The notes below the pieces were generated by a model. It was not told where the DNA came from, made no database searches, and saw only the letters and a program-made list of their open reading frames with translations. A stretch of DNA of 64,000 nucleotides, taken from the NCBI GenBank assembly GCA_963281255.1, contig OY725506.1, positions 346,001 through 410,000 on the forward strand. Direction: 5' to 3'. A program made the position numbers and the translations under genes. The DNA comes from Aphrocallistes beatrix. Its lineage: Eukaryota; Porifera; Hexactinellida; Sceptrulophora; Aphrocallistidae. Below are positions 25,242 through 63,035 of this stretch, piece by piece; positions within the stretch are counted from its first letter, which is position 1, and each line of letters starts with the position of its first letter.

Positions 25242-27857
25242 ATGCTTCTATACGTCTGTGCATTCCTTGTGGCTACTATGGTAGCTGGGAGACAATTTCC
25301 TGCTAACGAGAGGTACATCATCCTCCTGGAAAAGGGATCAGATGCTGGAGACATCGAAGAGCTGATTCAGAGTATGGAAGTGCACGCCTCTTCTACTCGT
25401 GAAGAGATGCAAGTGCGCTCCTTAACTTCACTACTGCCTTTCGTGATCGGAAACATGAGTGAGGCTACAGCTGAGATGGTGAGTGATTAAAATAACATTT
25501 TTGACATAATGGGTGGTCCATATATCCATTTTCGGTACAAGGATATACAGCTCGCCGAAGAAAAGTTCCTAATATCAATCTCATAAATTTCCATACATCT
25601 AAATCTATAAATAGCGTTGTGGTGTAGGGAAATATTGCAATATTTACGCTTCTATATAAGATAAATAATATTCAGTTGACTAAACCTGATAATTCGATAT
25701 CTCAACTAATAATACGAAAACAATTAAATGGGGTAAGGCAATTTTTAAATAAATATTTAAGAACCTCAATTCATAGGTTTCAAAACTATCAAGCGTTAAA
25801 CTTGTCGAAAAGAATCAAGTAATAAATCTTTACAACAGACGTTATATCGAACAATATACTCCCATATTGAATATACCTCAAACTGACCGCTACAACATAG
25901 ACATTCTAGACAATGTGGACTGTATTGATGGCAGTTTCAGTCCGTGCAACTATGGGAAAGGAGTGGACATCTACATCGTGGATACAGGAATCAATTATGA
26001 CCACATAGATTTTGGGTTAGTTTCAAACCTCAAATAGATGCAATTTTATAAACATGTACGTGTACGTATATTATAATAAACAATGAATAGTATACTCTAT
26101 TCATTGTTATAAAATGCTTTCTTTATATTTTTAATTTTAACCTTTTACATTGTATAATGGTTATATTATGCTCGAAAACTCAAAAAGTTTACAATGACAT
26201 CATAATTCCATTATTTTCACTTGAGATTTGACATTCCTCGAGCGACACACAAAATACTTGTTATACAACAATCGAGTTTTGATAATTTGATAAAGATAAC
26301 CATTGAAAGATTGAATCAATCAATTCGTGTAAGAATTTACAGTACAAGAATTTACAATAGGACCACATCGATCATTTTGGCCCGATAAAGCGGAGAACCC
26401 TATTAACCGAAAATTTTTTATTAGCTTCCATGTGTGAGAACTATTCCGGTCAATTTGTCCAATTCAGTGTTTGGTCCGACTGCTACCCAGTGACCCAATT
26501 AAACAGACTTTGTATTATTATATTGCTACATGAAGTACTGAATGTTAGGTTTAGAGGTGGACGGACTAGTGGAACTAGAGCAGAGCTAGGTTATGACGCT
26601 GTGGATGTGAAACTTGGTACAACTGATAAAGGGAAGGATAGCTATTATGGATGGGGAACCCATCATGCTGGAATAGCAGCCGGTATTTACAGTGGAGTTG
26701 CGAAAGATGCAAATCTGTACTCAGTAAGAGTTTTAAAGACGAGTGGGGCAGTTGATTTCGGTGATTGGGAGATGATAATTGACGGAATTGACCATGTTTC
26801 ATCGATGCACGATGAAAGATCATCGAGGTACAACTATATAACATTATACAACTAAGTAGCCATTATCTAGGAATATACACTTAATTTGCTTTAGAAAGAT
26901 GAAGAATTGCATTGACTATTTTTAAAATGCAAGGATTCACTTAATTGAGCTAGACTCTACGAAACCTTTTTTCTCTTAATTAACGATCATTCTAGTTTCC
27001 AACTATACCATAACCATATTAAGTGGTGCGGTTGGTAATAACAGACCATGGTTTTACCATTTTTTTAACTATATTAGTTTTATGGGCGATAAGGTGGATG
27101 GGCACCACTTTAAAACATAGTGACAATGGCCTTACCACTTTTTATGAGCTTCCGACGGCAATTTATACTATACATAGTGAGCTAACTTCTAGTAATTGAA
27201 TTTTTGATAAAACAGGTATAACTTTGTCGGATCTATTGCAAGCATATTCAATGTACAAGATAGCCGATCAATTTCAAATGCCGCTAAAGAACTGTGGAAT
27301 AAGGGAATCGTGACTGTTGTCAAGAGCGAAGACGCTCGTTCCGATGCTTGTCGATATTGTCGCGAAATGCATATATGCGTAGGTGCACATGGATACAATG
27401 TGGATACTTGTGACAAGAAAATGGTGGAGGATTCAAACTATGGACCATGTGTAGATATAATGGCACCTGGAGTGAACATAGTAAGCGCTAGCCATACAGA
27501 TGTTTTCAGTAAGTAACTATTCCAATGCATTCAGACTTTGATTCTATTTATATACCTGCTATAACACAATATACATACGTATAGCTGCATATTATCTCTG
27601 TCCTTATTGAAGTATATAATTTTATTAATTCCATTCCAGGCTTTACAGTTATGGAAGGAACCCAGGCGGCTTATCCTCATGTGACGGGAGTAGTTGCATT
27701 GATGAAAGGGGCTAACAGTAGCATAACTCCAGATGAAATACTATATAAGTTGAAGGAACATGGTATTGGTGACATAGACAGATCTGACCAATCTTGTGGG
27801 GTACAGGCAACATCTCATGCCAAAAGACTTTATGTCAGTAGTCAGCTGCTCGACTGA
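25242..27857 (+). CDS. Gene G: secreted subtilisin-like pseudoprotease (His, Asn and Ser lost)
   Basis: Exons: 25242-25478, 25777-26015, 26555-26827, 27216-27508, 27640-27857, encoding 419 aa with no stop. The signal peptide and I9 propeptide are essentially those of gene D. The Asp is kept (IVDTGINYDH). The catalytic His is Trp (YYGWGTHHAGI), the oxyanion Asn is Asp (VVKSEDA) and the catalytic Ser is Gln (GTQAAYPH), so it cannot work as a serine protease. All introns are GT-AG; the exon 3 acceptor sits 2 bases upstream of the family position and restores frame. AATAAA lies at 28029-28034. The intact frame with a dismantled active site suggests a binding, decoy or inhibitory role (inference). 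Confidence 0.8.
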
Positions 27858-28694
27858 TGAAACCAACAGCTGCTATTTTGCTCACCGTTTAGTATTCATG
27901 CTCCAACTACAGCTGATTAATCGCTAAGCTAGCAGTACTAACTAAATATAGTACAAAGTATATTTATTGGATCTTAGGCCTTGATAACAGTTTAACTCTT
28001 TCTATCATTATTTATATTGTTATTTCTCAATAAATCTAACTCCTATATGCTTATTCTATCAAATTAAACTTATTATTAACCAAAGCCATGCTAAAATACG
28101 TCGGAATTTATAGCTCTCAAAGAGTGGAGTGATTATGAGAGATGTTAGGTATTCCACTTAGCTGTGCTGCTATCTTGAACCTGTGCATCAAGAATTCAAT
28201 AATATGAGTATTACAAACGTTGAAATTTGTGGACAAATACTAAATAACATTCCCCACATTATTATGATATATCCCGATCCATTTGTTCCGATCAATCAAA
28301 TGTTTTACACGAATTCTAGAAATATATTTATCTAAAATATATATGCAATCCTTGAGCAGACAAGAGAAAATTCTTTCTTGATAGTAGATGGGCTTAATGC
28401 AAATATATCCATGGCAGTACCACCTTTTTGATAAACTGTGTTAGTTCTAAATATTCATCTGACAATGTGAAACAATGGCAAACGTAAGTTGCTTCTCACT
28501 ATGGGATATCACTGATTACGTTTCAATTCGAAATGTATGACAGAATGTCTCTATTCGTGATGCATAATTTATGAATGAGAATACTCGAATTATGCTCCCT
28601 TTATTATTCGCTGACGGATGCTATGTATAGATCTAGAACCTAGATAGCACTTAGTTCCATTTAGCATGGGAAACGATTATCTCGCATAAATCAA
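27858..28694 (+). other. 3' UTR/flank of G and spacer to gene H
   Basis: Bases 27863-28200 form the G-type 3' block, which recurs at 18707, 31265, ~37265 and 44615 and contains AATAAA at 28029-28034. The remainder to 28694 is AT-rich with no gene seen. Confidence 0.55.
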
Positions 28695-28700
28695 TATAAA
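28695..28700 (+). promoter_or_regulatory. TATA box of gene H
   Basis: TATAAA 51 bp before the ATG, which predicts a very short 5' UTR (~20 nt). This is unlike the ~110-140 nt leaders of the protease genes. Confidence 0.5.
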
Positions 28701-28750
28701 GCATTACTCACAATCATGCAAGCATATTTGTAATTTCTAATATTGTTCGA

Positions 28751-30550: not shown

Positions 30551-30651
30551 TTCGAAACATCAGAATTTTAGATTTGTAGATTACCTTTACTTTCCATATT
30601 TTATTCTCTTATTTATCTTTTCATTTCAATTTTATTTGTTTTATAAGGCAC

Positions 30652-30657
30652 ATTAAA
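30652..30657 (+). terminator. Possible polyadenylation signal of gene H
   Basis: The ATTAAA variant, ~100 bp after the stop codon. No canonical AATAAA was noticed closer. Confidence 0.35.
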
Positions 30658-31042: not shown

Positions 31043-31260
31043 GCTTTACAGTTATGGAAGGAACCCAGGCGGCTTATCCTCATGTGACGGGAGTAGTTGC
31101 ATTGATGAAAGGGGCTAACAGTAGCATAACTCCAGATGAAATACTATATAAGTTGAAGGAACATGGTATTGGTGACATAGACAGATCTGACCAATCTTGT
31201 GGGGTACAGGCAACATCTCATGCCAAAAGACTTTATGTCAGTAGTCAGCTGCTCGACTGA
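31043..31260 (+). pseudogene. Duplicate of exon 5 of gene G
   Basis: The same 218-nt exon as 27640-27857 with an apparently identical translation, including GTQAAYPH, preceded by the same acceptor (ccattccag|GC) and followed by the same 3' block to ~31700. Part of the upstream intron (30925-31042) is also shared. No exons 1-4 accompany it. Gene H lies between the two copies. It could be an inert duplicate, or an alternative last exon spliced from gene G's exon 4 across H; both acceptors are intact. Confidence 0.65.
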
Positions 31261-32284
31261 TGAAACCAACAGCTGCTATTTTGCTCACCGTTTAGTATTC
31301 ATGCTCCAACTACAGCTGATTAATCGCTAAGCTAGCAGTACTAACTAAATATAGTACAAAGTATATTTATTGGATCTTAGGCCTTAATAACAGTTTGACT
31401 CTTTCTATCATTATATTGTTATTATTCAATAAATCTAATAGCCTCTATATGCCTATTCTATCAAATTAAACTTATTATTAACCAAAGCCATGTTAAAGTA
31501 CGTCGGAATTTATAGTTCTCAAAGATTGGAGGGATCAAGAGAGATGTTAGATATTCCACTTAGCTGTGCTGCTATCTTGGAACCTCTGTGCATCAAGAAA
31601 TTACAATTATCCTATCAGAAGAGGTTATGTATAATATCCGGAATGGATCGAAACATACGCATTGATGATGGAGACCTTAGAAAGGGCCTCAACCCAGGTT
31701 GAAGCTAAGAGGACCTGGATCATCTCTAGTGTCCCCATTTTAGTATTTAACTCTATGTTAAGTGTTAAATATGTACCTCTCTGCATGGTTGTTTCATATT
31801 ATTGAAATTAAAAGAATAAAAATATTCTAGTGATCTTCAAAGAGCCAAAATTACGAATCTTGACTCGTCATTTCTGAGTCTATGTAAAATAACATAACTA
31901 CAATCATAGGCGTAATGATTCTCCTTCTTTTGAGATATTATCTTAATTTTATGCTCTTTTCCTCCTGAAAAATATTATAAAGAGTGTCGATAGACCAAGT
32001 TATGTTATATTACGAGTATCTTTATCATCAGATTTGAGTTAGTTAATAATGGCAAAAATAAATAATTGAATTAAGCAGATACAGTATTGATTTATCAGGA
32101 ATACAGTCGAATACTAATAGAATGAGTAAGCAATCAATACACTATGAGGCCTAAGATATAGTTTGGTTAGTTTGAGGAAATATTAGAATAAATAAGTTAT
32201 TACTAGCAACTAATTACTTACTAGTAATAGCGAGAATATATGGAATACTAGACAGAGAGCAAAATAGATAGCAGAGAATGTTAT
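31261..32284. other. G-type 3' block and 3' flank of gene I
   Basis: Bases 31265-31730 repeat the block after gene G (AATAAA near 31429). From ~31850 to 32284 is the minus-strand 3' flank shared by all units. I see no gene. Confidence 0.5.
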
Positions 32285-34570
32285 TCAATGGAATAGCTCA
32301 GGACTAACAAAGAGTCTTTTAGCATGAGTTGTCTCCTGTACTTCAGAAGACTCGCTAGAATAGTTCATGTCATCAACAGCATAAGCCATTATCCTTAGTC
32401 GTATCTCAGCTGGACATAAAGTAGGATCAGCTTTTTTCATTAATGCAGCTACTCCTGATACATGAGGAGTAGCAGCTGCCGATCCATACACCAGTATAAA
32501 CTCTGTAATAGATTTGATTCTTGTAAACAAAAATTTAATCTCCATTAAAATATCACCAGAAAAAGTGCGCTTCGCTTGCTTGCGCTGCGCGGAAATTTTT
32601 AGTTCAAATATACAATGGAATTTACTTACCGATATTGTTTGTACTTTCGGCAGTGAGTATGTCTTCTCCAGGCGCCATTATATCGACACATGGTCCATAG
32701 CTTGCATACTGATCCACCTTCTTAACACAGGTCTTTATATCGTATTCATGTGCACCTACACATATGGCGCGTTCATTTCGACAGAAATTAGTTTCACAAT
32801 TATCAACCTTCTTTTTTCCACTGGCAACAACAACAACAACTCCCGAATCCCACAACTCTTGTACTGCCTTGTCAACTGTAATTTTAGCATAGTCTCCACC
32901 TCCAAAAGATATGCTTGCAATCGTCCCGACGAATTCTGGCCTAAATTTGCAAAACGAAATTGTAGTAATGATAAACCTAGCTAAAATTTTGACACCTTTT
33001 CACAAAAGGTGTCAAAACGTATTAGCCAATCAAGATCCAGGGATTTAAGATCACAGTTGGTTTTGATTTTATTGACTGATAGACCAAACTCAATGCTTAT
33101 AAACGAACCACATTGACTTCCTAAACTTAGAATCTGATTGGTTTATTTGGTAAAAAATGCTTAAAATGCAATCAAGGATGTATATTATGCAAATGCCCTA
33201 CGAGTCACTTAATAGAGCTTCACTATCAGTCTGTCGACTGACACTTTTTTAGTTGTCATTATACAACAGGTATTACCTCTTTGATTTTTCACTGTGTGCC
33301 TCTCCAATGTAGTTCAGCCCAGCGATTACTGTACTCACACTACCTCCTGGATAACTTCCTATGACTCTTACTGAGTACAGATTTGCGTCCTTGGCGATTC
33401 CACTCATAAGACCTCCTGCTATTCCTGCAGTGCATGTACTAAAATGTTCTAGTCCAACATATGAAGTGTTATGGTGTTCTTCAAATGCGTCAAAGCCAAA
33501 TTTTGCTCTACTTCCACAGTCTCCATTTCTCCACCTGGAATAGTAAAAATATCATGTAAGAAATAAGGATATATCTTAGCTTACTGTATATATGACCACA
33601 GAAACTTGTGGATTTTGGACTAGGGATGCGGTAGAAGATGGTTGAACTAATACATGAGCTGCCTTAAATCATTAACCAATTATGATAGAGCTTAGGAATG
33701 TATTACCAGCCTATATAAATATGGTATGGTATCAAAGTACCCACATCTTTTGTTAAAATTTAGATTTGTAATCATATGATTGTGCCATTGGTTATATTTG
33801 TGACAAATTGCATCTATGAGAATAGGTCATATATCCCGATAGGAATTACAATAATAAATTACATTAAAACTATGAATGCACTGAACCTAACCTGAAATCT
33901 ATATGATCAAAGTTGATTCCTGTGCCTACAAGGTAGATGTCTGCTCCTAACCCGAAATTATCTGGCGTGAAGGTACCATCAGTACAGTTGACATTATCGA
34001 GAATGTCTAGGTTGAATCGATTTGTTGGAAACTTTGTTTCTTCCAAAATGGGAGATTCGTCTTGTTCAATGGACATGTCAAGATGTACAACCTGGTCCTT
34101 CTCGATGAGTTCAACATTTGGTAATTTTGAAACCTATAAATAAGATATCTAATGAAACAACACTACGCAAAACAGCTCATCAAAATATCAGCAAACAACC
34201 AATCAGAATGACAGCTCATTGTAGCATTTTGAATAAAAACATTAAAGGTAATATTAATGGAATTGCAACCTCTGAAAATTCGAAATGAAAGATTTAAATG
34301 CTTGTTTTAATAATAGTAATGATAAATACTCACCATCTCAGCTGTAGCTTCACTCATGTTTCCGATCACGAAAGGCAGTAGTGAAGTTAAGGAGTGTACT
34401 TGCATCTCTTCACGAGTAGAAGAGGCGTGCACTTCCATACTCTGAATCAGCTCTTCGATGTCTCCAGTATCTGATCCCTTTTCCAGGAGGATGATGTATC
34501 TCTCATTATCAGGAAATTGTCTCCCAGCTACCACAGTAGCCATAAGGAATGCACAGACGTATAGAAGCAT
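32285..34570 (-). CDS. Gene I: secreted subtilisin-like pseudoprotease (Asp, His, Asn and Ser all lost)
   Basis: Exons (minus): 34334-34570, 33892-34133, 33277-33534, 32630-32940, 32285-32502, encoding 421 aa with no stop. The signal peptide and I9 propeptide are standard. At the Asp site is Gly (IYLVGTGINFDH), at His is Phe (GLEHFSTCTAGI), at the oxyanion Asn is Lys (VVVVASGKKK) and at Ser is Ala (YGSAAATPH). Conserved cysteines, the DIMAPG motif and exon phases are retained, so the fold is probably kept. Intron 4 has a normal GT donor (G|GTAAGT) and a truncated GC-rich repeat head at ~32563-32592. It forms a sub-clade with J and L. Confidence 0.85.
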
Positions 34571-36589: not shown

Positions 36590-37600
36590 GAGAGAGAGTC
36601 TGTTAACTCAAATATATTTTGCCTCGAAATATCCAATTTGATACACGTGTGAGTATAGAACACTTCTTGCTTTAACATCTGCGTAGTTTGTCTCAATACA
36701 GTTAGGATTTTTGTCAGTCGCGTTTGATAACGAATATAGTGTGCACTGGTCATGTCCATTCCAGAAGTGTGCGATATTACAGATTTTATGGGAGCATTGT
36801 AGTTAGTTATCCGAATAGAAAGAAGTCGTAACAGGGTTGCCGTGGGATTGAATAACATTTTGGCATAATGGGTGGTCCTTCCATATATTCATTTTCAGTA
36901 CAAGGATATACAGCTCGCCAGAGAAAAGTTCCTAATATCAATCTCATAAATTTCCATACACCTAAATCTATAAATAGAGTTGTGGTGTAGGGAAATATTG
37001 CAATATTAACGTTTCTATACACGACATGACAAAAATAATATTCAATTGAGTAAACCTAAATATTCGATATCTCAACTAATAATACGAAAACAATTAAATG
37101 GGCAGAGGAAATTTTTAAATAAATATTTAAAAACCTCAATTCATAGGTTTCAAAACTATCAAGCGTTAAACTTATCGAAAAGAATCAAGTAATAAATCTT
37201 TACAGCAGACGTTATATCGAACAATATACTCCCATATTGAATATAGTACTTCAAACTGATCACTCAATAAATCTAAATCTTATATGTTTATTCTATCAAA
37301 TTGAACTTATTATTAACCAAAGCATGTTAAAGTACGTCGGAATTTATAGCTCTCAAAGAGTAAAGGCATCAGGAGAGATGATAGGTATTCCACATAGCTG
37401 TGCTGCTATCTCGGAACCTGTGCATCAAGAAATTAAAAGTAACCTATCAAAAGAGGTTATGTCTAATATCCGGAATGGATCGGAACATAGGCATTGATGC
37501 TGGAGACCTTAGAAAGGGCCTCCTCCCAGGTTGGAGCTAGGAGGACCTGGATAATCTCTAGTGTCCTCATTTTAGTGTTTAACTCTATGTTAAGTGCTGA
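36590..37600 (+). pseudogene. Relic of a G-type gene: intron 1 and partial exon 2 fused to 3' UTR
   Basis: Bases ~36860-37146 match intron 1 of gene G. Bases 37147-~37255 match the first half of G's exon 2 (VSKLSSVKL...), with a 3-bp insertion near its end. The sequence then jumps directly into G's 3' block (37262 on). The Asp-bearing half of exon 2 and exons 3-5 are deleted. The preceding ~36590-36850 pairs with ~43970-44200 near the other relic. Confidence 0.65.
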
Positions 37601-38137: not shown

Positions 38138-41100
38138 TCAGTGGAATAGATCAGGACTAACAAAGAGTCTTTTAGCATGAGTTGTCTCCTGTACTTTAGA
38201 AGGCATGTCAGATCTGTCTATGTCATCAACAGCATAAGCCATTATCCTTTGTCGTATCTCAGCTGGACATAAAGTAGGATCAGCTTTTTTCATCAATGCA
38301 GCAACTCCTGTTACATGAGCACCAGCAAATCCCGCTCCATTGTCCATTTCAAAATCTGTAGTAGATTTAAATTGTGTAAACAATAATTTAAGCTCCATTA
38401 AGATATCACCAGAATGTGAAACTTGTAGATCCTTACTATTAAAACTCGATTAATGTGTGATAGTATGTATGTGTATACTTTTTGGGTGATAAAAGACTGA
38501 AATTATAATAGAATAATAATTGTATATTAATATATCTCAAATATGAAAAAATATCTTCAAAAAATGATGACTCATTATTTTTATATGACATCATCGTTAG
38601 GGATCAAAAAGCGCATAATTGACAAATTTGATGATCTTTCGAGTGATATCGATATAACAGTAAGACAGACATAATTAGAGATGTTAACTATATTATAATC
38701 AATAAATAGGCAACCAATGGACGCCTCCAGTGGACACAAAGTGTCCGCCACCCCCTCAGCCCAGCAGGCGAAGTGCGTTTGTCCATATAGATACGAAGTA
38801 TATTCTAGATTAAGGCAAATTATAACCAGGAGCATATTATTTGCTAGCACAGATTATTCGTCTATTCCCAGATTGTGTGGATTATTCTAAATTATAGACT
38901 CCTCGTATATGCCCCTGGTATATTCTGGGCTGTTGCATCAAAAGTGATGGAATTTCTAAAAGATTTCGAAAGTGCACATCTACGCGTACAAATTAAAGAG
39001 ACCCACATGCAAAATTTGCAAAAAATTCAGACTGTTATATTTCGCAATGAAAATCAGTAAAGAGTCAAAGTTGAAATATGCAATAGAATAAACTCACCGA
39101 TATTGTTGTAACCACTGGCAGTCAATATGTCTTGTCCGGGCGCCATTATATCGACACATGGTCCATAGTCTGATTTCGTATACATTTTCTTAACACATGT
39201 ACTTTCATCGTATTCATGTGGAGCTACACATATGACGCGTTTACCTCGACAGAAAGTACTCTCACAACCATCAATCGCCTCGTCTCCACTGGCAACAACA
39301 ACAACAACTCCCGAATCCCACAACTCTTGTGCTTCCTTGTCAAGTCCCATTTGAACCATAAAGTTACTTCCAGTAGATATGCTTGCAATCGTCCCGACGA
39401 ACTCTGGCCTAAATTTGCAAAAAGCATTTATAGTAATGATAAACATAGCAATTTAATTAAGCTAATAGTGCTTTGTTGATTATCGAACGTTATGACGTAA
39501 TGGTACAAGCAGAGACGTAGTGAGAGTGCAGTGCATACGGCTAAGGCCTCAATCCAAAGGTTTTGTGCCTCACTCTGACCTCATCTTGACCCATGTTTTC
39601 ACAGTTCGATCTTGGTTTTAAAATTACACCACGATTTGTGCAATTTTCATCGCTACAAACGCGCTTCGTTTGCTTGAGCTGCGAGGCTGGCGGACACAAA
39701 TAGCATACCAGAGGCATCTTTTGGGCGCCTATGCTCACATTGAGTAATTATAAGGTAGATAATATCTCAAAACCGTCTGTCTCACTGTTACGATCGATAT
39801 CACTCGAAAAATCACATTCTTCGATCAATTCGTTACAGAGATATAAATATATTCACACGATATTAATTGAATTTTGATAGAAAGGATTCATATTTTTCGG
39901 TGGTTAATATCTCGGTGAGTCTAAGCTGTACCAAGGTCTCAACCTTAAACACCTCCCTTGGCCTCACCCTAAAATTCAGCTGGCTTCTGGCTACAGGGGT
40001 GTGAATATTAATGCTAGTGCTGCTCTTAGAATAGAATATGCCTTATGCCATGATGTCGAAACCCCATCAATATGTCAGCATGTCCGTCTGCTCTCTACAG
40101 GAATTTCGTTTCGACCAAATTGGACCAAATCTGGGGCATATATTCCTTATATGGTGGAGATTTGAACCTAAGTCCAAATTCTAAACAATTTTCGCACCTT
40201 TTCACAAAATGTGTCAAAACGTATTAGCTAATCAGAATCCAGGGATTTAACATTAAAGTTGCCATTGATTTTATTGACTAATAGACCAAACTCAATGCAT
40301 ATAAACGAATCACAATGACTTCCTAAACTTAAAATCTGATTGGTTTAACATGGTGAAAAATGCTTAAAACCCAATTAAGGATTTTAAGGATGCAAATTCC
40401 CTACGAGACAAAGTGAAGCTGCACTATTAGTCTGTCGACTGACATTATTTAGCTGTTATTATACAAAAGGTGTTACCTCTTTGAATTTTCTCTGTGTTCG
40501 TTTCCAATGTAGTCCAGCCCAGCGATTATTGTCTCCGAGGTACCGTGTTGAGCATGTCCGATGACTTTTACTGAGTACAGATTTGCGTCCTTGGCTATTC
40601 CACTCACAAGACCTCCTGCTATTCCTGCAGTGCTTGTCTCATAAGACTCCAATCCAACATATGAAGTGTTACGGTGTTCATCGAATGCGTCAAAGCCAAA
40701 TTTTGCTCTACTTCCACAGTCTCCATTTCTCCACCTGGAATAGTAAAAATATACTTTAAGAAATGAGGAGAGATATATATTATATCCAACTATACTTAGG
40801 CATCTCATATGTAGAACTGATTTTCGCACTTAGCTTTTGTAAAATTATCAGTACAAAGATTTTTAATGCTGCTCCCAGTCTCGGATCATGCCTCATGTCA
40901 TGATCGGGATGCGACGTCCGTCCGTCCATCTGCTTGATCCTGGAAATTCTACTGGACAAAATGACACCAAATTTAGACCATATATTGCAAATATTGTGGA
41001 AATTTGAACCTGAATCCAAATTATCAAATATTTTCTCACCTCTCCACAAAAAATGTCAAAATATATTGGATTGAAATTCAATTAAGGCTGCATATTATTC

Positions 41101-44392: not shown

Positions 44393-44611
44393 GCTTTACA
44401 GTTATGCAGGAAACCCAGGCGGCTTATCTTCATGTAACGAGAGTAGTTGCATTGATGAAAGGGGATAACAGCAGCATAACTCCAGATGAAATACTATACT
44501 GAGTTGAAGGAACATGGTATTGGTGACATAGACAGATCTGACCAATCTTGTGGGGTACAGGCAACATCTCATGCCAAAAGACTTTATGTCAGTAGTCAGC
44601 TGCTCGACTGA
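44393..44611 (+). pseudogene. G-type exon 5 copy with a 1-bp insertion
   Basis: Matches 27640-27857 but is 219 nt. An extra base near 44500 puts a stop in the middle of the exon (ILY*). Substitutions also alter GTQAAYPH to ETQAAYLH. The acceptor and the 3' block (44615-45060) are conserved, and AATAAA lies at ~44776. G-type intron 1 sequence sits just upstream, with exons 1-4 missing. Confidence 0.7.
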
Positions 44612-48500: not shown

Positions 48501-49019
48501 CAAAATAGGAGATTCGTTTTGTTCAATGGACATGTCAGGATGTACAACCTGGTCCTTCTCGATGAGTTCAACGTTTGCTAGTTTTGAAACCTATAAATGA
48601 GATATCTTATAAAACAACACTACACAAAACAGCTCATCAAAATATCAGCAAACAACCAATCAGAATCACTATTCAGACATAGCTCAATGTGGCATTTTGA
48701 ATACAAAATATAATTAATATAGTCATGGATTTGTGAGCCCATTAGAAGATTTATTTTTTAATATGCTCATTTAATCACTCACCATCTCAGCTGTAGCCTC
48801 ACTCATGTTTCCGATCACGAAAGGCAGTAGTGAAGTTAAGGAGCGTACTTGCATCTCTTCACGAGTAGAAGAGGCGTGCACTTCCATACTCTGAATCAGC
48901 TCTTCGATGTCTCCAGCATCTGATTCCTTTTCCAGGAGGATGATGTACCTCTCATTAGCAGGAAATTGTCTCCCAGCTACCATTGTAGCCATAAGGAATG
49001 CACAGACGTATAGAAGCAT
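45565..49019 (-). CDS. Gene K: secreted subtilisin-like pseudoprotease (Asp, His and Ser lost), mosaic of clades
   Basis: Exons (minus): 48783-49019, 48355-48590, 47351-47617, 46256-46557, 45565-45782, encoding 419 aa with no stop. Asp is Gly (IYIVGTGINYDH), His is Ser (LFGSGTHSAGI) and Ser is Tyr (GTYTACPH). The oxyanion Asn is kept (CSSGNYA). Exon 2 is almost identical to that of gene B, the Asp-to-Gly change being one base (GAC to GGC). Exons 3-5 have the lengths and wording of the active clade, while intron 4 has a GT donor (G|GTAAGT). Exon 1 has EKESD where others have EKGSD. It may have died recently from the active lineage. Confidence 0.85.
46607..47124 (-). mobile_element. Dispersed repeat, full copy in intron 3 of gene K
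   Basis: Reverse orientation: AT-dinucleotide tail at ~46611-46626, body with TGACGTCA at 46751-46758, and GC-rich head at ~47038-47122. Collinear with 9241-9757. A decayed hAT-MITE-like sequence follows at ~47175-47310. Confidence 0.65.
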
Positions 49020-51645: not shown

Positions 51646-54600
51646 ATGCTTTTCTACGTCTGTGCATTCTTTGTGGCTACTGTGGTAGCTGGGAGACAAT
51701 TTCCTGCTAATGAGAGGTACATCATCCTCCTGGAAAAGGGATCAGATGCTGGAGACATCGAAGAGCTGATTCAGAGTATGGAAGTGCACGCCTCTTCTAC
51801 TCGTGAAGAGATGCAAGTAGACTCCTTAACTTCACTACTGCCTTTCGTGATCGGAAACATGAGTGAGGCTACAGCTGAGATGGTGAGTGTTTATCATTAC
51901 TATTATTAAAACAAGTATTTAAATCTTTCAGTACGATTTTTAGAGAATACAAATACTTTACAATATTACTTTTACAAGCGCGCTTCGCTTGCTTGCGCTG
52001 CGCGGCTTGCGGGCACTGCGTGTCCGCAGAGTTACCCAGTGGGCGCTTGGGGATATTAGAGAAACAATACGTCGCTTTCTTGTTCTCTACTAAGTATGCT
52101 GAATTGCCATTTGTCTACATTAATGAAATCAGAACCGAAAATTTAGGTTCGTGATAAATAGAATTTACTTCGTACTAAGTCAACTAATCCTGAATGTAAG
52201 GTCAATTTGAATCCACATTACTAAATATTATTATACTTGAATAATCAACCAATTTCACTCCATGTCGTTAACAACAATTAAAGTGTGTTATCTGATATAA
52301 TCAATCAATTCGATTATAAAATAACTTTTAACAATAAAATAATAGACTCAAATAACTGTATTCAATTATTTATATGATTTAAAATCGTGTAAATCGCATT
52401 ATAAAAGTCTGATAATTGATTGGTTCTCACATGAACCAATGAATTTCAATCACAAACAGTCCTTTTGATTGTATGCATAAGTCACTGCTATTTGATCCCA
52501 ATGTATTTGCATTATAAAAGAAACGAATTTCATTGGTCAGCACAATTTGTCACCTATCTCGGCGAGGTGTGAAGATTTCGCTTAGATCTTCGAACTTAAT
52601 CGTAGACTCATTATTATTTACCTGTGTGTCAAATTTCACATTTCTAGCACCTCCCAGTTCCTCAATCAATTCTGGACAAACAAACAAACAAACAAAAAAA
52701 CAAAAAAACAAAAAAAAACAAAAAACCATTGCGTTTTAATATATAAGATTGTAATTATTCAAAATGCTGCAAAGAGCTGTCATTCTGATTGGTTGTTCGC
52801 TGATATTTGATGAGCTGGTTTGCATAGTGTTGTTTCATAAGATATCTTATTTATAGGTTTCAAAGTTAGCAAACGTTGAGCTCATCGAGAAGGACCAAGT
52901 TGTACATCTTGACAGTTCCATTGAACAAGGCGAATCTCCCAATTTAGAAGAGATTCTTCCAATACCCTATCGATATAACCTAGACATTCTCGATAATGTG
53001 AATTGTACTGATGGTACCTTCACGGCAGATAATTTTGGGTTAGGAGTGGACATCTACTTTGTAGGCACAGGGATCAACTTTGATCATATAGATTTCAGGT
53101 TAGCATCAGTGCTTTTAACGTATTTATTATGGTAATTACTATTGGGATATAGAGCTCGCTTTTAGCTTAAAATATGATATTTTTTCAAAAGGTGTGAAAA
53201 TATGTATATATATCAATATGTTAATAACTCATAAAATATTCATATTATTACTTTCAAAGCGCGAAAATCGGCTCCTACATGGTGAAATACCCTACATTAG
53301 TCGTTGAGATCTTACTTATATCTTTAAATAAAGCTTTGCAGTGGTGGTGTTAAAATATGAATGTAAGAACTTCTCAAAGCGGCACCTCTGAAATACGGCA
53401 ATTAAGTGAACTCCGGATTGACATTTTCAATGCAAAATTACCTCCGAGATGCGACACTGTCTGGCAAACGCGCACTTATGGCCTAAAAATATTTGCGTAT
53501 ATTAATTAATATATTATTCATCAATTTAATTAACAATATTTAATATTTAAACTTCAAATTTCTAAGTGTCTAGAGAAGTCCACTCGAAGTTAGGGAGTCG
53601 ACAACTGGTGTAGATGTGCACTGTCAACAAAAAATTGTTGACAGTGCACATCTACACCATAATGAGATTCTACATGCGAAATTTGGTAAAATCGGACTGT
53701 TAGATTTCGCAGTAGCGCGGATATGGACATAGTAGTACATACATACGGACGGACGAGATACTCCGTCCATGCCATAAGGGCATCTCCCTATAGGAGCCGC
53801 AATAAAAAAACAAAAAACACCATTGCGTTTTTAATATATAAGACATATGAGGTCTAAATAACAATGACAGTATATTGTAGCGCCTTACAATGATTTCTAT
53901 TCTAAGAGTGAAGTCATATATATTGGATGGAAAAGTTGTGAAATTTCTTTTGCTTTTCTTCTGGTAGTGTGAAAATTTCTTCAGATTTCGAAATTCATCG
54001 TAAATTCATCATTGGCACATGCATGCCAATTTTCATATCTCTACTACTTAGCAATTTTTCAATCAATTCGAACAAACAAAAACAATCTTAGCATTAGATT
54101 AATGTTACAAACGCTAAGTGCGAGAATCAGTTCTGCCTAAGTATTGTTGGGGATATTATAATATATATCCTTATTTCTTACAGTATATTTTTACTATTCA
54201 AGATGGAGAAATGGAAACTGTGGAAGTAGAGTAAAATTTGGCTTTGACGCATTCGATGAAGACTATAACACTTCATATATTGGACAATGGCGTTCTGATA
54301 CAAACAGTGCAGGAATCGCAGGAGGTATCGTGAGTGGAATCGCCAAGGACGCAAATCTGTACTCAGTAAAAGTCGCAGGATCTGATGTATCCGGTACGTG
54401 GAAAACAATCATCGATGGGTTGAACTACGTTGGAAAGGCACACAGTGAAAATTCAAAGAAGTAATACTTGTTGTATAATGGTAACTAAAATAATATCAGT
54501 CGACAGACTGATAGTGCAGCTCCATTTAGTGACTCGTAGAGCATTTGCATAATATACATCCTTAATTGAGTTTTAAGCAATTTTACCATGTAAACCAATC

Positions 54601-57457
54601 AGATTTTAAGTTTAGGAAGTCATTGTGATTCGTTAATATTCATTGAGTTTGGTCATCAGTCAATAAAATGAAAGCCAACTGTAATGTTAAATCCCTGGAT
54701 TCTAATTGGTTAATACGTTTTGACACCTTTGGTGAAAAGGTGTGAAAATATTTCAAAATTTTGACCCAGGTTCAAATCTCCATTATATCCACTATATAAT
54801 AGCCAACTGAATTTTAGGGTGCGGCCAAGGGCAGTTTATAAGGTTGAGACATTGGTGTAGCTTAGAATCACCGAGATATTATCCACCGAAAAATATAAAT
54901 CCTTACTATTAAAATGCGATTAATATAGTGTAGTATATTCTCTGTAACGAATTGGTGAAGAAAATGATTTTTCGAGTGATATCGATTATAACAGTAAGAC
55001 AGCCGTATTTAGAAATACAACCGCGCTTCGCTTGTCTGCGATGCGCGGGTAGCGGACACTCTGTGTCCGCCAGAGGCTCCCTTTGGGCACCTAGGCTCAC
55101 ATTGATTAATTATATGGTAGATAACATCACGAAACACGTATTTCTTACTATTATAATCGATATCAATCGAAAAATCACCAAATTTGTCAATTTGTCAATT
55201 TTTGATGCGTAATGATGACATCATAACAGTGATGAGTCATCATTTTTTTATGATAGTTGGATCATTATTGAGATATATTAATATACATATTCTATTAAAA
55301 TTACAGCCTTCTATTCCCTAAAATTACTGAGTTATAGTCGAAAAATTGAAGTTTCTAATTATTAAAAAAGTGACAATGACGTCGTAATTCCATGATGAGT
55401 CGACATTTTCGTCAGAGGTCAGAACTTAGTGGAGCCATAGCCAAAAGACTCCTACATGCCAAAAATCAGCTTTCTGTGCCTTGCAGTTTCTTCAATCAAT
55501 TCTATACATATATTTATATACAGTATATACTATATATATATATATACACATTAATCGAGTTTTAATAGTAAGGATTATCTACCTTATAATTAATCAATGT
55601 GAGCCCAGGCGCCGAAAAGATGCCTCTGGCGAACACTTTATGTCCGCCAGCCTCGCAGCGCAAGCAGGCGAAACGCGCCTGTAGTGATGAAAATTGCACA
55701 GATCGTGGTGTAATATTTACACCTATATCGACTACTACAACATGGGCCAAGATGAAGCCAGATTGAGGCACAAAATTATTGCATTGAGGCCTTATCCGCA
55801 TGCTGCACCCTCGCTACGTCTCTGCTTGTAGCATTACGTCATAACGTTTAATAATGCTTCAAAGCTCTAGTAGTTTAATTAAATTGATAGGTTTATCAAT
55901 ACTATAACTTTCTTTTTGCAAATTTAGGCCAGATTTCATCGGATCGATTGCAAGCATATCTTCTTCATTAAATATTGCTACTATTGCAGTTGACAAAGCA
56001 GCGCAAAAGTTGTGGGATTTGGGAGTTGTCGTTGTTGTTGCCAGTGGAAACGCAGAGTTAGATGGTTGTGAAATTACTTTCTGTCGAGGTGAACGTTCCA
56101 TATGTGTAGGTCCACATGGATACGATAAAACTACCTGTGGTAAGAAGGTGAATACGTATTCAAGCTATGGACCATGTGTCGATATAATGGCGCCTGGAAA
56201 AGACATACTGACTGCCAGTACCATGAACAATATCGGTAAGTAAATTCCATTGTATATTTGAACTAAGATTCTTTACTATTCCTCTTTGTCCCAGATTATC
56301 TGGATTATTCTAAATTATATACTACTCGTATATGCTCCTGGTATATTCCGGGCTGTTACACCGAAAGTGATGGAATTTCAAAAAGATTTCGACATTGCAC
56401 ATCTGCGTACACCATAAAGAGACACACATACAAAATTTGCAAAAATCCAAACTGTTATATTTCGCAATTAAAATCAAACCAGTGCTAGTAATAATATACT
56501 ACTGGTAATTAGGTACCTTAACCTAGAATATACTCCGGGGTATAATATAGGCTTGCTGAGTATCTATACGTATATACAATCGCGCTTCGCTTGCTTGCGC
56601 TACGCGACTTGTGCCCACAGAATCGCCCTTCGGGCGCCTGGGGTTACTCAATCTAACATATTTTGGGAATTTGTTTACTTTATGGAAATATTGTAAAGAA
56701 AAGTTAACAAATATTTATCATTCGCTTGCGCCTAGGCTCATATTCATTGATTATAAGGTAGTTAACATCTCTAAATACATCTGTCTTACTATTATAAACG
56801 ATATCACTCGAAAGATAATCAAATTTGTCATCATTTTTTGATGATAGTTGTGTCATATTTGAAATATATTAATATACTCTTAATATTTCATTATAATTTC
56901 TGCCTTCTATCACCTAAATGGCTGAGTTACAGTTTGAAAAACTGAAATTTCCAAATATACAAAAGGTGACAATGACATCATAATGCTATGATGATTTGAT
57001 ATTTTAATCTGAGGTCAGGATTTAATGGAGCCATAGCCAAAAAGACTTCTATATGCCAAAAATAAGCCTTCTGCGCATCGCGGTTTCTTCAATCAATTCG
57101 TTACAGAGCTATATATATATATATATATATACTGTGACACATTAATCGAGTTTTAGTAGTAAGGATGTATAAGTTTTACATTCATGTGATATTTTAATAG
57201 AGCTTAAATTATTGTTTACCCAAATCAAATCTACTACAGATTTTGTAAAGGAGACAGGGACAGAATGTGCTTGTCCTCATGTAACAGGAGTTGCTGCATT
57301 AATGAAAAAAGCTAATCCTGCTCTATGTCCAGCTGAGATACGACAAAGGATAATGGGCTATGCTGTTGATGACATTGACAGATCTAACAGGTCTTCTGAA
57401 GTGCAGGAGATATCTCATAGCAAAAGACTCTATGTTAGTCCTGAGCTATTCCACTGA
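51646..57457 (+). CDS. Gene L: secreted subtilisin-like pseudoprotease (Asp, His and Ser lost)
   Basis: Exons: 51646-51882, 52857-53098, 54203-54460, 55928-56235, 57240-57457, encoding 420 aa with no stop. Asp is Gly (IYFVGTGINFDH), His is Ser (GQWRSDTNSAGI) and Ser is Glu (GTECACPHVTG). The oxyanion Asn is kept (VVVVASGNAE). Exon 2 is closest to that of J. All introns are GT-AG, with intron 4 donor G|GTAAGT. At 5.8 kb it is the longest unit because introns 1, 3 and 4 hold dispersed repeats. It is the only I/J-type gene on the plus strand. Confidence 0.85.
51975..52055 (+). repeat. GC-rich structured repeat head in intron 1 of gene L
   Basis: Head of the family at 9241-9757. The AT-rich body that follows differs from the full copies and resembles that at ~60860-61070 in gene M. 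Confidence 0.5.
52530..52752 (+). repeat. SINE-like repeat with (CAAA)n tail in intron 1 of gene L
   Basis: Sequence running through 'atttctagcacctcccagttcctcaatcaattctggacaaac' into an (aaac/aaaaac)n tail at ~52677-52731, then 'cattgcgttttaatatataag'. Related copies lie near 41400-41580 (reverse), 53820-54100 and 61070-61200. Confidence 0.45.
54480..54770. repeat. Repeat shared by intron 3 of genes I, J and L
   Basis: About 270 bp also present at ~32985-33260 (I) and ~40190-40450 (J), with the palindromic core GTCTGTCGACTGACA at one end. That core alone also appears at ~41125-41160 and 63628-63655. It could be an old insertion inherited by the clade or conserved intron sequence. Confidence 0.45.
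55018..55512 (+). mobile_element. Dispersed repeat, full copy in intron 3 of gene L
   Basis: Head at ~55020-55105, body, and tail near 55500-55548. A reverse-orientation head of a second copy follows at 55598-55685, so two copies face each other. Confidence 0.6.
56578..57133 (+). mobile_element. Dispersed repeat, full copy in intron 4 of gene L
   Basis: GC-rich head at ~56581-56645, AT-rich body with part of a second head at ~56722, and an AT-dinucleotide tail at ~57110-57133. Confidence 0.6.
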
Positions 57458-58199
57458 ATAACATTCCCTGCTATCTATTTTGCTCTCAGTCTAGTATTCC
57501 ATATATTCACGCTCTTACTAGCGAGTAATTAGCTGCTAGTAATAACTTAGTTACTAAATTCTAATATTTTCTCATACTAACCAAACCATATTTTAGGCCT
57601 CATAGTGTATTGATTGCTTACTCATTCTATTAGTATTCGACTGTATTACCTCATATATCAATACTGTATCTGCTTAATTCAATCATTTATTTTTGCCAAT
57701 ATTAACCTACTCAAATCCGGTGATAAAGATAATATGGCATAACTTGACCTAAGAACTCTTTTGTAGTAGTTGTCTTTCAGGAAGAAATGAGCGAAAATTT
57801 GAGGTAATATTTCAAAAGAAGGAGAAACCATTGCTCCTATGATTGTAGTTATGTATTTTACATAGACTTTGAAATGTCGAGTCAAAATACCTCATTTAAA
57901 CATGATATTCTTTAGGTTCCCCTAGCTCCAATCCAGGGTGGGAGGAGAGCGGCCCTCCCCAAGGTTCCCATCATCGATACCTATTTTCTAACCCATTCCA
58001 GATATAGGCATACCCCGCTTTTGATAGACTGATTGTAATTTCTTTTTTGAAAGATATTAGACTTATTTTATGGGAAATGATACGTAACATACAGCCGACT
58101 CCGCTTAATAGGGTCACATCGGTTAGAGGACATTTTGCTTCGATTAAACGGAGAACCCTATTAACCGAAAATAATTTGTATTAGCTTCTATGTGTCTTT
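57458..58199. other. 3' flank of gene L and spacer
   Basis: Bases 57460-57730 are the family 3' flank in plus orientation. Further on are C/T-rich unrecognised sequence and, at ~58095-58185, a fragment ('cgattaaacggagaaccctattaaccgaaaat') also present near 18655 and 26380. I see no gene. Confidence 0.45.
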
Positions 58200-58362
58200 C
58201 CGCAGGTGCACTCATCATAGCGTAGTGGTGCTACGCATATATATTTTGAGCCACATAAGGATTCCGTGCATTCGTTTTCTGTGAATCTTCCCCTGGGAAC
58301 AACTACAACTATTCCTTGAGCCACTAATGCCCTAGCCGCCTTGTCAGCTAAATCGTTCTTTA
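58200..58362 (-). pseudogene. Relic: partial exon 4 fused to a protease-gene 5' flank
   Basis: The minus strand reads DKAARALVAQGIVVVVPRG... then ESLCGSKYICVAP, a diverged exon 4 whose oxyanion region is PRGRF instead of ASGNE. Directly upstream (58370 on) it joins the 5' flank typical of I, J and K, including the conserved module at ~58546-58571 with CACGTG. Exons 1-3 and the proximal promoter are deleted. Confidence 0.65.
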
Positions 58363-59752: not shown

Positions 59753-62700
59753 TCATTTGAAGAGGCTAGAGGTTACATGAAGTCTCATCCCAACAACTTG
59801 ATTTTTTACGCAGGAAGACATTTCAGATTTGTCAATGTCGTTAACATTATTGGTAAAGAAGCTTGCTGCTATGTCGGATATGGTTATATCAGGGTTAGTT
59901 GCCTTCATGCATGCAGCCACTCCAGCCACAAGTGAAGAAGCAGTAGATGTTCCACTCTTAAATACGTAACCTATTTTATACGTAAATAGATTAGAACCGA
60001 TCAGCCATTCTATTTAAATACTACATCTTAAAGTCGTATGCATCAGGTGTATACATGATAGCTATGGTAAAAGCCGCATCGCTGAATTTCGCGGGACACT
60101 GCGGGACGCAATATAAATTTTTTTTAAAAAAAAAGTGGAACATAATGGGGAAATTTCATGTCAAAGCGGGACACTCGCAAAAAGTTTCTCAATAGAAGAG
60201 TGAAAAAAGCGGGGACATCTCGACAAAAACGGGACAGTTAGCATGTATGCAGGTGTGAAGTGATTGAACTAAAAGTGGTTGAAGTCAGTCCAACTGTCAA
60301 AACGGTCCTTTTGGAGGATATAATGGGGGTATCATAGTCCAACTGTACCGGTAGTCACTGTCCTACACATACAATGCTAATAATGAAGAATCATTGTTTG
60401 TTTCACTTACCATCATTATCTGTGTTACTAGCGCTTAAAATGTTCACCCCAGGTGCTATTGTTTCAACACAGTTTCCATAGCCAGAGTTCGGCCATATCT
60501 TCTTTTTACAGCTACACTGCTCATACTCATGTGCACCTACGCACAGACCTCCTTGGCATAATGTGTTCTCGGGACAATCGACAGGAGAGTCTCCACTGGG
60601 AGCCACTGTGATAATTCCCACAGCATTTAATGCAGTGGCAGCTTTGTACGCCAACTTGCTTTCACCTAAGATTGTGATGCTTGCAATCGATCCCACAAAA
60701 TCTGGCCTATTATTTCAATATATTAAATCATGTGCAGTGGTTTATATAAATGTGACAATACTAGTAATATTATTAATAACAAGCGCGATTCGCTTGCTTG
60801 CGCTGCGCGGCTTACGGGACTGTGTGTCCCCAGAATCGGCCTGCGGGCGCCTGGTGATATCAAGAAAATGGTTGATTTTTTCTAATTCTCTCCTAAAAAA
60901 TGTCATTTATCGACGCGGTTATACTCATGAATTCAATTGAGAAGAAAGATTATGTTTATGATAAAGGAATTTACTAAATATTAGGCGAAATTAACCTGAA
61001 ATACTCAATTTGAAACCACATAGAAAGTTCATATTACCAAAGATTATTATATTTGAATGGATTAACCAATTTCAGTCCTACATGCCAATTTACATATCTC
61101 TACGACTTACCAATTCTTCAATCGATTCGGACAAACACATCCAAACGAACAAATAAACAAACAAACAAACAAATCCTAGCGTTTTAATATATACTTGTAA
61201 GATTAATTAAAAGTGTGATATTATGTGACTACATATACTACGCCATATGTGCATTTCATCTCTTAAGGGGGTTAAAATGTGATCTAGTGAAGAGTTAAGC
61301 TATAATTACAAGTATGTACCTCAGTGAATTCGTGTTATGCATTTTGAAGACTGCTTCCATTCCGCTGAGGACTGTTACCCAACTGCCGTAAAAGGGTGCA
61401 GGCCCCTTGACTCGCACAGAGTACAGATTTGCCTCATACGCAAATCCACTGTCTACACCTCCTGCTATTCCAGCATAGTGCGTGCCTGTGCCGATAGGGT
61501 CTCTTCCCTGCTCATTTGTACGGTAATGAGCGTCAATAGCATCAAAGCCTAGTTTTGCTCTTGTTCCACTCTTCCCATTTTTAAACCTACAAATTGTAAT
61601 CATTTATTGCGTATTTTTAGTGCAGTTCCTATTATAGTACTGCTTTAATGGTATCGACGGAGTGCAACGTATGTCTGTCCGTCCAGACGTTTTTGAGAAA
61701 GATACGGGACCGATTTTACCAAACTTGGAACTGACAGTCCTTATATGGGAGTTTTTCACCTGATGTAACTATTATTCATATTTTCACACATTTCCTAAAA
61801 ACGTGACAGAATGTGTTGACCATTGAGATTGAAGAATTTTAATTTTACAGCTGAAGGTGGATGTTGTTGCAGAAAAAATAAATATATTTCCATAGCTTCA
61901 ATGTTAAATTAATGGATTCTGATTGGCTAATACAATTCTACACCTTGTTGAAAAGATGTTAGATTTTTCAAAGGTTGAATTCAGGATCAAATATATCCGC
62001 CATATACGAAATATATGACCGAAATTTTTTGTGCGATTCAGTATGTAGCATCATTCTAATACAGTATCTATACATCAGTGCTACCTGAAATCTACATGAT
62101 CATAGTTGATTCCTGAGTCGAGAATATAGATATCAACGCCTGATCCAGGGCTATCTGGAATGTAAAGACTGTCATTAGCACAATTCACATCATTGATAAT
62201 GTCCAAGTGATAGCGATAAATGTTAGGACTATCCAAAAGGAGAGAATTGTCTCGCTCGAAAGACACGTAAGGGTCTACAGCTTGGTCTGGTATGATGTCA
62301 TCAACATTTGGCAGTTTTGATACCTATAGTTGAGGGATCTTAAATATTTTCAATTATTATAATATTTTATTCTTATTGATTCATGAATTGATAGAATGCT
62401 GTGTTCTACTGTATATAATATAAAATTCAGATGACAGCACTTATTTATAGGCTAGGAAGGATTTCTTTGAGATAAAATTCCCAAAATTCTCAGTAATTAT
62501 GTATTTGTTTTTAATATAAAAATTTTGTTTTCCCAGTTAAAATTTTTATTAACATTAAATATTATTCTGTAACACCTAAATATAAATCGATAATTTTAAA
62601 ATTTAAAATTAATCGGTCAGTTAATTGACAGTCTAAGATTGATCTAAGAACAGCATGAATTAAATAGTTAACGAAGTCGAATGTATAGATTCCGAATATC

Positions 62701-63035
62701 TGATTTGAAGAGGTCTATGAAAAATTTTAATTTCAATTTTATAATTCTTGAAATAATGGCACAATATTCATGAAGTAATCTTAATGTTAATCACTCACCA
62801 TCTCAGCTGTAGCCTCACTCATGTTTCCATACACGAAAGGCAGTAGTGAAGTTAAGGAGCCTACGTGCATCTCTTCACGAGTAGAAGAGGCGTGCACTTC
62901 CATACTCTGAATCAGCTCTTCGATGTCTCCAGCATCTGATCCCTCTTTCAGGAGGATGATGTACCTCTCGTTATCAGGAAATTGTCCCCCAGCTACCATA
63001 GTGGCCAAAAGGAATGCACAAACGTAGACAAGCAT
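59753..63035 (-). CDS. Gene M: divergent secreted subtilisin-like protein, His and oxyanion Asn lost but Asp and Ser kept
   Basis: Exons (minus): 62799-63035, 62085-62323, 61320-61586, 60411-60706, 59753-59970, encoding 418 aa with no stop. The start chosen is the ATG at 63035, matching the other members (MLVYVCAFLLATMVAG). Asp is kept (IYILDSGINYDH). His is Thr (PIGTGTHYAGI), the oxyanion Asn is Asp (APSGDSP) and Ser is kept (SGTSTASSL), although the following Pro-His is missing. Exons 2-5 are the most divergent in the array, while exon 1 remains close to all others. All introns are GT-AG. Without His it should not be an efficient protease. Confidence 0.8.
60780..60860 (+). repeat. GC-rich structured repeat head in intron 3 of gene M
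   Basis: Head of the dispersed family, with body sequence like that following 51975-52055 in gene L. A (CAAA)n-tailed repeat lies further on at ~61070-61200. Confidence 0.5.

What the first reader, a model, noticed from the sequence alone, without database searches (positions are those of the whole stretch)
25242..63035. Six intact-frame pseudoproteases, each with a different set of active-site losses, beside four intact proteases
Seen: G, I, J, K, L and M keep five exons, phases, signal peptide, I9 propeptide and open frames. Their catalytic positions read (Asp/His/Asn/Ser) D/W/D/Q, G/F/K/A, G/Y/D/G, G/S/N/Y, G/S/N/E and D/T/D/S; A, C, D and E read D/H/N/S. His is lost in all six. Known: secreted protease homologues without catalysis act as regulators, decoys or binding proteins in other families. 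Inference: the full frames and varied replacements suggest selection for non-enzymatic roles, perhaps several independent losses, within one co-regulated locus.
Basis: partly seen in the sequence, partly recalled or inferred. Interest (0 to 1): 0.88.

Follow-up and report, generated by a model that had tools for sequence, protein, structure and literature searches.

The report
Glass-sponge dead-protease gene family
In what looks like a glass-sponge genome, a cluster of secreted protease genes holds a few intact enzymes and more relatives whose cutting machinery is gone but whose genes are still open and still shaped by selection, which suggests that they bind rather than cut.

Summary
All ten window genes (active A, C, D, E; inactive G, I, J, K, L, M) have five exons, open frames and the stated residues. 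Flanks and other contigs add five intact pseudoproteases (O, Q, T, C4, C1). All 11 lack the catalytic His. The proteins are proteinase K-like S8; mtDNA points to a glass sponge.

They do not look like drifting pseudogenes: homogeneous neutrality is rejected, and the product of 11 tip probabilities of no stop is below 10^-18 under neutrality. Yet 8 of 11 tip dN/dS values do not differ from 1. Site models show a mixture: 11-17% of sites at omega 3-9, in actives and pseudoproteases. These sites concentrate in the substrate cleft in the actives and I/J/K/L; in the M group the main test shows none.

Exon 1 (signal, propeptide start) is homogenised across active and inactive copies; exons 2-5 are not.

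Several independent losses and co-regulation are not shown. Best reading: retained non-catalytic binders, perhaps decoys for cleft ligands. Expression and binding are untested.

The parts
1400..4813 (-). A, active-type S8 zymogen; exons 4813-4577, 4403-4165, 3839-3573, 2352-2051, 1617-1400
   Evidence: D/H/N/S
6362..8709 (-). B, active-type copy, frame broken in exon 3
10387..12937 (-). C, active-type; exons 12937-12701, 12528-12293, 11761-11495, 11333-11032, 10604-10387
   Evidence: D/H/N/S
14688..17712 (-). D, active-type; exons 17712-17476, 17277-17042, 16701-16435, 15630-15329, 14905-14688
   Evidence: D/H/N/S
19666..22428 (-). E, active-type; exons 22428-22192, 22021-21783, 21439-21173, 20622-20321, 19883-19666
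   Evidence: D/H/N/S
23800..24033 (-). F, solitary exon-1-like piece
25242..27857 (+). G, pseudoprotease D/W/D/Q; exons 25242-25478, 25777-26015, 26549-26827, 27216-27508, 27640-27857
31045..31242 (+). H, exon-5 piece with the same matched peptide as G exon 5
32285..34570 (-). I, pseudoprotease G/F/K/A; exons 34570-34334, 34133-33892, 33534-33277, 32940-32630, 32502-32285
37147..37284 (+). exon-2 fragment, G-like
38138..42990 (-). J, pseudoprotease G/Y/D/G; exons 42990-42754, 42554-42313, 40734-40477, 39408-39098, 38355-38138
44501..44593 (+). exon-5 fragment, G-like
45565..49019 (-). K, pseudoprotease G/S/N/Y; exons 49019-48783, 48590-48355, 47617-47351, 46557-46256, 45782-45565
51646..57457 (+). 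L, pseudoprotease G/S/N/E; exons 51646-51882, 52857-53098, 54203-54460, 55928-56235, 57240-57457
58196..58348 (-). exon-4 fragment; C4 exon 4 is the best of the queries tried
59753..63035 (-). M, pseudoprotease D/T/D/S; exons 63035-62799, 62323-62085, 61586-61320, 60706-60411, 59970-59753

Best explanation
A family of secreted proteinase K-like (S8) zymogens, in a probable glass sponge, in which the intact catalytically dead copies found (11) outnumber the intact active-type copies found (4). SHOWN: open frames, splice sites and propeptide region; loss of the catalytic His in 11 of 11; selection on the coding sequence; positively selected sites in both classes; exon 1 homogenised between classes. 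INFERRED: the dead copies are secreted proteins that bind with the remodelled former substrate cleft instead of cutting. The most likely use is competition for ligands of the active siblings' cleft, either canonical protease inhibitors (bodyguard decoy) or protein substrates. A near-common signal-propeptide exon would give all members the same secretion and folding start. Recurrent gene conversion keeps that exon uniform, while the mature exons have diverged too far to convert.
For: 15 intact five-exon models; residues. Pseudoprotease class omega 0.66, fixed at 1 rejected with 2dlnL 50.6. M1a vs M2a 2dlnL: all15 139.7, pseudo11 77.0, active4 43.6, IJLK 74.2, MTC1OQC4 42.5; again with exon-specific trees, exons 2/3/4/5 12.5/67/58/27. 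Cleft share of sites with posterior >0.95: active4 6 of 32 vs 5 of 260 elsewhere (p 3e-4), IJLK 6 of 32 vs 7 of 260 (p 1e-3), all15 9 of 32 vs 13 of 260 (p 1e-4). Mean posterior omega is higher in the cleft in all five sets (Mann-Whitney p 0.027 to 8e-5). Exon 1 neutral tree length 0.50 against 2.6-3.4 for exons 2-5. A-J exon 1 identical at 236 of 237 though the 300 bp upstream matches at 0.53, while A's closest relative C differs at 13 of 237 though flanks match at 0.93 and 0.97; D-G 236 of 237 with flanks 0.56 and 0.48. AU rejects exon 1 on each other tree tried and the exon 1 tree on exons 2-5.
Against: No expression, proteomic or binding data. In the M/T/C1/O/Q/C4 group no site >0.95 lies in the cleft (0 of 32 vs 8 of 260, p 1; 2 of 32 vs 16 of 260 at 0.8, p 0.61), and for all 11 pseudoproteases the 0.95 test is not significant (2 of 32 vs 6 of 260, p 0.21; 7 of 32 vs 16 of 260 at 0.8, p 0.007). 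The cleft list was written after the sites had been seen, from recalled subtilisin BPN' numbering, with no control for surface exposure. 9 of 11 pseudoproteases have lost the S-x-G-G motif (kept in K and I), which by recall helps to hold canonical inhibitors. 8 of 11 tip omegas are not distinguishable from 1. Broken pseudoprotease-type copies exist (P, R, U).
Confidence: 0.5

Rival explanations
1. Birth-and-death debris: inactive copies are young pseudogenes that drift and have not broken yet.
For: Several tip omegas near 1 (J 1.40, M 1.07, O 0.95, Q 1.16, T 1.04); broken copies and fragments of both types lie around them.
Against: Homogeneous neutrality rejected; internal pseudoprotease branches omega 0.46 (some of these may predate the loss of activity); product of 11 tip probabilities of no stop below 10^-18, substitutions alone; exon gaps 23 of 25 in frame; of 17 five-exon copies the 2 broken ones are active-type.
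Confidence: 0.1
2. Regulators of the active siblings through the shared propeptide: the dead zymogens keep the I9-like prodomain and inhibit, chaperone or titrate the active enzymes, or are matured by them in trans.
For: Signal plus propeptide exon nearly identical in both classes (90-100% nt identity among 17 copies) and homogenised; dead copies should not be able to cleave their own propeptide (inference from the residues).
Against: Homogenisation alone can come from conversion without function; the propeptide end in exon 2 is not homogenised and varies in length; I9 below Pfam cut-off.
Confidence: 0.2
3. Structural or scaffold proteins: the fold is reused as matrix material, as has been proposed for silicateins.
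For: Probable glass-sponge host; a passive scaffold role is discussed for sponge silicateins in PMC10282587 (section 2.5 read).
Against: Cleft-focused positive selection in I/J/K/L is not expected of a scaffold; no link to a spicule or matrix proteome was found in the papers seen.
Confidence: 0.08
4. Exon 1 is uniform because of nucleotide-level constraint, not gene conversion.
For: Matches between distant copies often end close to the exon limits, for example D-G from -28 to +259.
Against: Constraint does not make A agree with J at 236 of 237 sites while A differs more from C in exon 1 than in the flanking intron, nor does it change the tree.
Confidence: 0.07

Closest known systems
Scabies mite inactivated protease paralogues (SMIPP-S, SMIPP-C; PMC5956821, passages seen)
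   Same: Multicopy protease families with catalytic residues lost in many copies beside active ones (32 SMIPP-S beside one active serine protease; five SMIPP-C beside five active); some SMIPP-S inhibit complement.
   Different: Other folds (serine protease group of mite allergens, cysteine proteases), not S8; a parasite. No exon-limited homogenisation is mentioned in the passages seen.
PsXLP1 bodyguard decoy of Phytophthora sojae (PMC5814044, passages seen)
   Same: Inactive paralogue co-secreted with the enzyme binds the enzyme's inhibitor.
   Different: Endoglucanase, truncated paralogue; inhibitor binding was shown there and is untested here.
PCSK9 (PDB matches; PMC8551645 and PMC13276728, start of abstract in listing)
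   Same: Proteinase K-subfamily animal S8 protein that acts without catalysis after release of its prodomain, which stays bound.
   Different: PCSK9 cleaves its own prodomain, so its triad works; by recall it has a C-terminal Cys/His-rich domain, absent here, and is not an expanded family.
CspC pseudoprotease of Clostridioides difficile (PMC6636752 and related rows, start of abstract in listing)
   Same: Subtilisin-like pseudoprotease working with a related catalytic protease.
   Different: Bacterial spore germination; no expansion seen in the listing.
Gall midge small secreted salivary proteins (PMC2955719, start of abstract in listing)
   Same: Secreted gene families in which coding parts vary more than non-coding parts.
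   Different: Unrelated small proteins.

Membership tests
Peptidase S8, proteinase K-like | Peptidase_S8 domain by profile | tested here: met
   6 of 6 proteins scanned are over the cut-off (E; A, G, I, M, K); 6 of the 15 intact proteins were scanned. Best PDB matches of E and A: keratinase, aqualysin, other proteinase K-type chains, PCSK9
Peptidase S8 as an active enzyme | Asp/His/Ser triad plus oxyanion Asn | tested here: not met
   Met in A, C, D, E; not met in 11 of 11 pseudoproteases
Inhibitor_I9 prodomain | PF05922 over cut-off | tested here: inconclusive
   5 of 5 match at about residues 24-98 with 13.5-20.8 bits against cut-off 21.2; E not listed at 0.001
Pseudoprotease under selection | Catalytic residues lost, frame kept by selection | tested here: met
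Pseudoprotease under selection | No proteolytic activity; a non-catalytic function | not testable with these tools
   needs protein
PCSK9 | C-terminal Cys/His-rich domain (recalled) | tested here: not met
   the 15 models end at 410-427 aa, soon after the S8 domain
Paralogous inhibitor decoy (PsXLP1 type) | Inactive paralogue binds the inhibitor of the active one | not testable with these tools
   no inhibitor known
Pseudogene | Neutral evolution, frame decay | tested here: not met
   For the 11 intact pseudoproteases. B, A0 and the fragments do fit

The most novel reading that the evidence does not exclude
A protease fold turned into a variable recognition repertoire in an early-branching animal: a constant leader-propeptide exon, kept uniform by gene conversion, is joined to mature exons whose former substrate cleft is diversified by selection after catalysis was given up, with inactive members outnumbering enzymes and spreading to other chromosomes.
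Probability: 0.2. Interest if true: 0.82.

Novelty: new variant of a known kind. Interest (0 to 1): 0.58.

Why it matters
Here one probable glass-sponge locus holds active and dead members of one S8 family with graded losses, so the steps from enzyme to non-enzyme can be compared inside one genome. The contrast between a converted exon 1 and diversifying mature exons is a clear, testable case of gene conversion limited to one exon. If the dead copies bind cleft ligands, the family gives a test of paralogous decoys in an early-branching animal.

Tried and rejected
Rejected: plain pseudogenes for the 11 intact copies; haplotig artefact (the copies lie at separate places of one 2.84 Mb contig); the actives nested with K/I/J/L inside the rest (AU 0.04, borderline). 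Not decided: K with the actives (AU 0.30) or K/I/J/L with the actives (AU 0.19), hence one to three losses. Codons at the His site (K, L TCT; I TTT; J TAT; six M-group copies ACA; G TGG) suggest one event for K/I/J/L and one for the M group. A bilaterian host was my first guess (note) from AGA=Ser; it was dropped when ATA at conserved Ile sites, no TGG in cox1, nad3 beside cox1 and a split cox3 frame fitted glass sponges. 18S rRNA could not be searched. In literature searches no paper on S8 pseudoproteases of glass sponges was among the rows shown (20 of 55, 12 of 147, 8 of 8, 10 of 1,825, 8 of 8,657); the library is partial.

Rows left out: A0 and B (frameshifted) and the fragments (F, H, N, P, R, S, U, C2, C7 and three short window pieces) were left out of the 15-copy alignment, trees and omega fits. 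Exon models were required to be open and in phase, so the exon gap count is partly fixed by construction; its two gaps not in threes are in the O-Q pair. 14 related pairs were compared, and introns differing more than 1.6-fold in length were left out. The four outgroup rows are joined tblastn pieces and lack some residues. Codon fits use my own GY94 code on one tree for exons 2-5; recombination can inflate M2a, which is why exon trees were tried too. Exons 2-5 accept the joint tree, but exons 2, 3 and 5 reject some of each other's trees, so some exchange there is possible. In one search the tip probability of G was 0 of 2,000 and was entered as 1 in 2,000.
Full report
What is there. The window is C20:346001-410000 of an unnamed 100.5 Mb, 28-contig genome. 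Exon-wise tblastn and a splice-aware model search give 15 intact five-exon genes of one family: A, C, D, E, G, I, J, K, L, M in the window; O, Q, T in the right flank; C4 and C1 on other contigs. Intron phases are 0/2/2/1 in all 15. Two further five-exon copies are frameshifted, B in the window and A0 in the left flank (seen by eye). Fragments lie between them, among them broken pseudoprotease-type pieces P, R and U in the right flank. The genome search lists 22 places for exon 1 and calls its counts lower bounds. The proteins are proteinase K-like S8 domains behind an I9-like propeptide that scores just under Pfam's cut-off.

Catalytic residues. The His is lost in 11 of 11 pseudoproteases; Asp is kept in 6, Asn in 4, Ser in 3. 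Four more distant paralogues of the same genome keep D/H/N/S in the pieces aligned. All six active-type copies (A0, A-E) use a GC donor in intron 4; the 11 pseudoproteases and fragment N use GT.

History. The rooted protein tree groups A, C, D, E (SH-aLRT 89.9, bootstrap 88) and, weakly, all pseudoproteases (82.9/58); I/J/L, M/T/C1 and M/T/C1/O/Q/C4 have bootstrap 99-100. AU tests do not reject pseudoprotease monophyly (it is the ML tree), nor K or K/I/J/L with the actives (0.30, 0.19); they reject, narrowly, actives with K/I/J/L inside the rest (0.04). Losses may number one to three.

Selection. On exons 2-5, one omega is 0.66 for pseudoprotease branches and 1.02 for active branches; forcing the former to 1 costs 2dlnL 50.6. 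By tip, G (0.42) and C1 (0.53) are below 1 and I (3.1) is above 1 at the 5% level (2dlnL 19.2, 4.4, 7.2); the other 8 of 11 do not differ from 1. Site models resolve this: in all five sets tested M2a beats M1a with 11-17% of sites at omega 3.1-8.7. In the four sets that hold pseudoproteases 32-40% of sites have omega 0.13 or less; in the four actives 89% of sites have omega 0.55 and no such strongly constrained class appears. Exon-specific trees repeat the result for exons 2-5 but not for exon 1 (2dlnL 4.7). Exon gaps are multiples of three in 23 of 25 cases over 14 close pairs, intron gaps in 36 of 206. Under neutral substitution alone the product of the 11 tip probabilities of no stop is at most 10^-18.4; this is conditioned on my having chosen intact copies, though all 11 pseudoproteases found with five exons were intact.

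Where the selected sites lie. By recalled subtilisin BPN' numbering, six of the 11 active-copy sites >0.95 (E numbering 190, 219, 225, 294, 295, 353) fall at S2, S2/S4, the 98-101 loop, the S1 floor and S1'. A list of 32 cleft positions, written after the sites had been seen, was tested against 260 other positions. At posterior >0.95: actives 6 against 5 (p 3e-4); I/J/L/K 6 against 7 (p 1e-3); all 15 copies 9 against 13 (p 1e-4); all pseudoproteases 2 against 6 (p 0.21; at 0.8, 7 against 16, p 0.007); M/T/C1/O/Q/C4 0 against 8 (p 1; at 0.8, 2 against 16, p 0.61). Mean posterior omega is higher in the cleft in every set, M group included (1.30 against 0.97, p 0.004). So cleft diversification is well supported for the actives and for I/J/K/L, and at best weak for the older M group.

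Exon 1. Its neutral tree length is 0.50 against 2.63, 3.28, 3.25 and 3.36 for exons 2-5. Nucleotide identity is 90-100% among 17 copies; between copies of different groups the match often ends near the exon limits, for example D-G from -28 to +259, while related copies match far beyond. A and J agree at 236 of 237 sites, D and G at 236 of 237, though their flanks are at or near chance similarity (A-J intron 1 is 0.80); A and its closest relative C differ at 13 sites though their flanks agree at 0.93-0.97. AU tests reject exon 1 on all five other trees and the exon 1 tree on exons 2-5, while exons 2-5 each accept their joint tree. I read this as gene conversion across active and inactive copies. 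Conversely, upstream regions differ between classes, which speaks against a single shared promoter.

Host. The 17,996-base mtDNA reads AGA as Ser, keeps AAA as Lys, uses ATA at conserved Ile sites and has no TGG in cox1 (conserved sites judged by recall). Genes recognised by eye in the translations, apart from cox1 and the large rRNA, lie on one strand with nad3 next to cox1 and a cox1-cox2-rRNA order, and cox3 is split between two frames. These are traits given for Aphrocallistes vastus and other glass sponges (PMC2267718, passages). The species is not known. The A. vastus genome paper (PMC10282587, passages and sections 2.2 and 2.5) reports lineage-specific tandem clusters but no S8 cluster in what I saw; passages of the Oopsacas minuta genome paper (PMC10280926) held no mention of proteases of this kind.

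Mechanism. Shown: dead copies are kept as frames, part of their sites is constrained, and at least I/J/K/L diversify the former cleft. Inferred: they are secreted and bind. I judge cleft-ligand competition (decoy for inhibitors, or substrate binder) most likely, propeptide-based regulation next, scaffold and debris less likely. Loss of the S-x-G-G motif in 9 of 11 (kept in K and I) suggests that those nine no longer bind in the canonical inhibitor manner.

Noticed in passing
window 28751-30550 (+): Apparently single-exon protein of 599 aa with a hydrophobic start, a pesticin/phage-lysozyme-like domain, a von Willebrand A domain and a hydrophobic tail, inside the protease cluster between G and H; GC is 0.41 in that 2-kb bin. 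Possibly a laterally acquired antibacterial domain (inference).
   Followed up: partly
intron 4 donors of A0, A, B, C, D, E: All six active-type copies use a GC donor (g|gcaagt) where the 11 pseudoproteases use GT.
   Followed up: partly
window 27855-27960 and 31258-31360; also about 18700-18830: The sequence after exon 5 of G recurs after the solitary exon 5 H, and similar sequence on the other strand is seen below E; read by eye.
   Followed up: no
G000:C28 (L037, L038): Mitochondrial genome of glass-sponge type with cox3 split between two frames.
   Followed up: partly
L033 (C2:7009001-7018000) and L035 (C7:4478001-4487000): Incomplete family members on two more contigs: in the 9 kb fetched, C2 shows exons 1-3 only, C7 an exon 1 and an exon 2 piece.
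   Followed up: no
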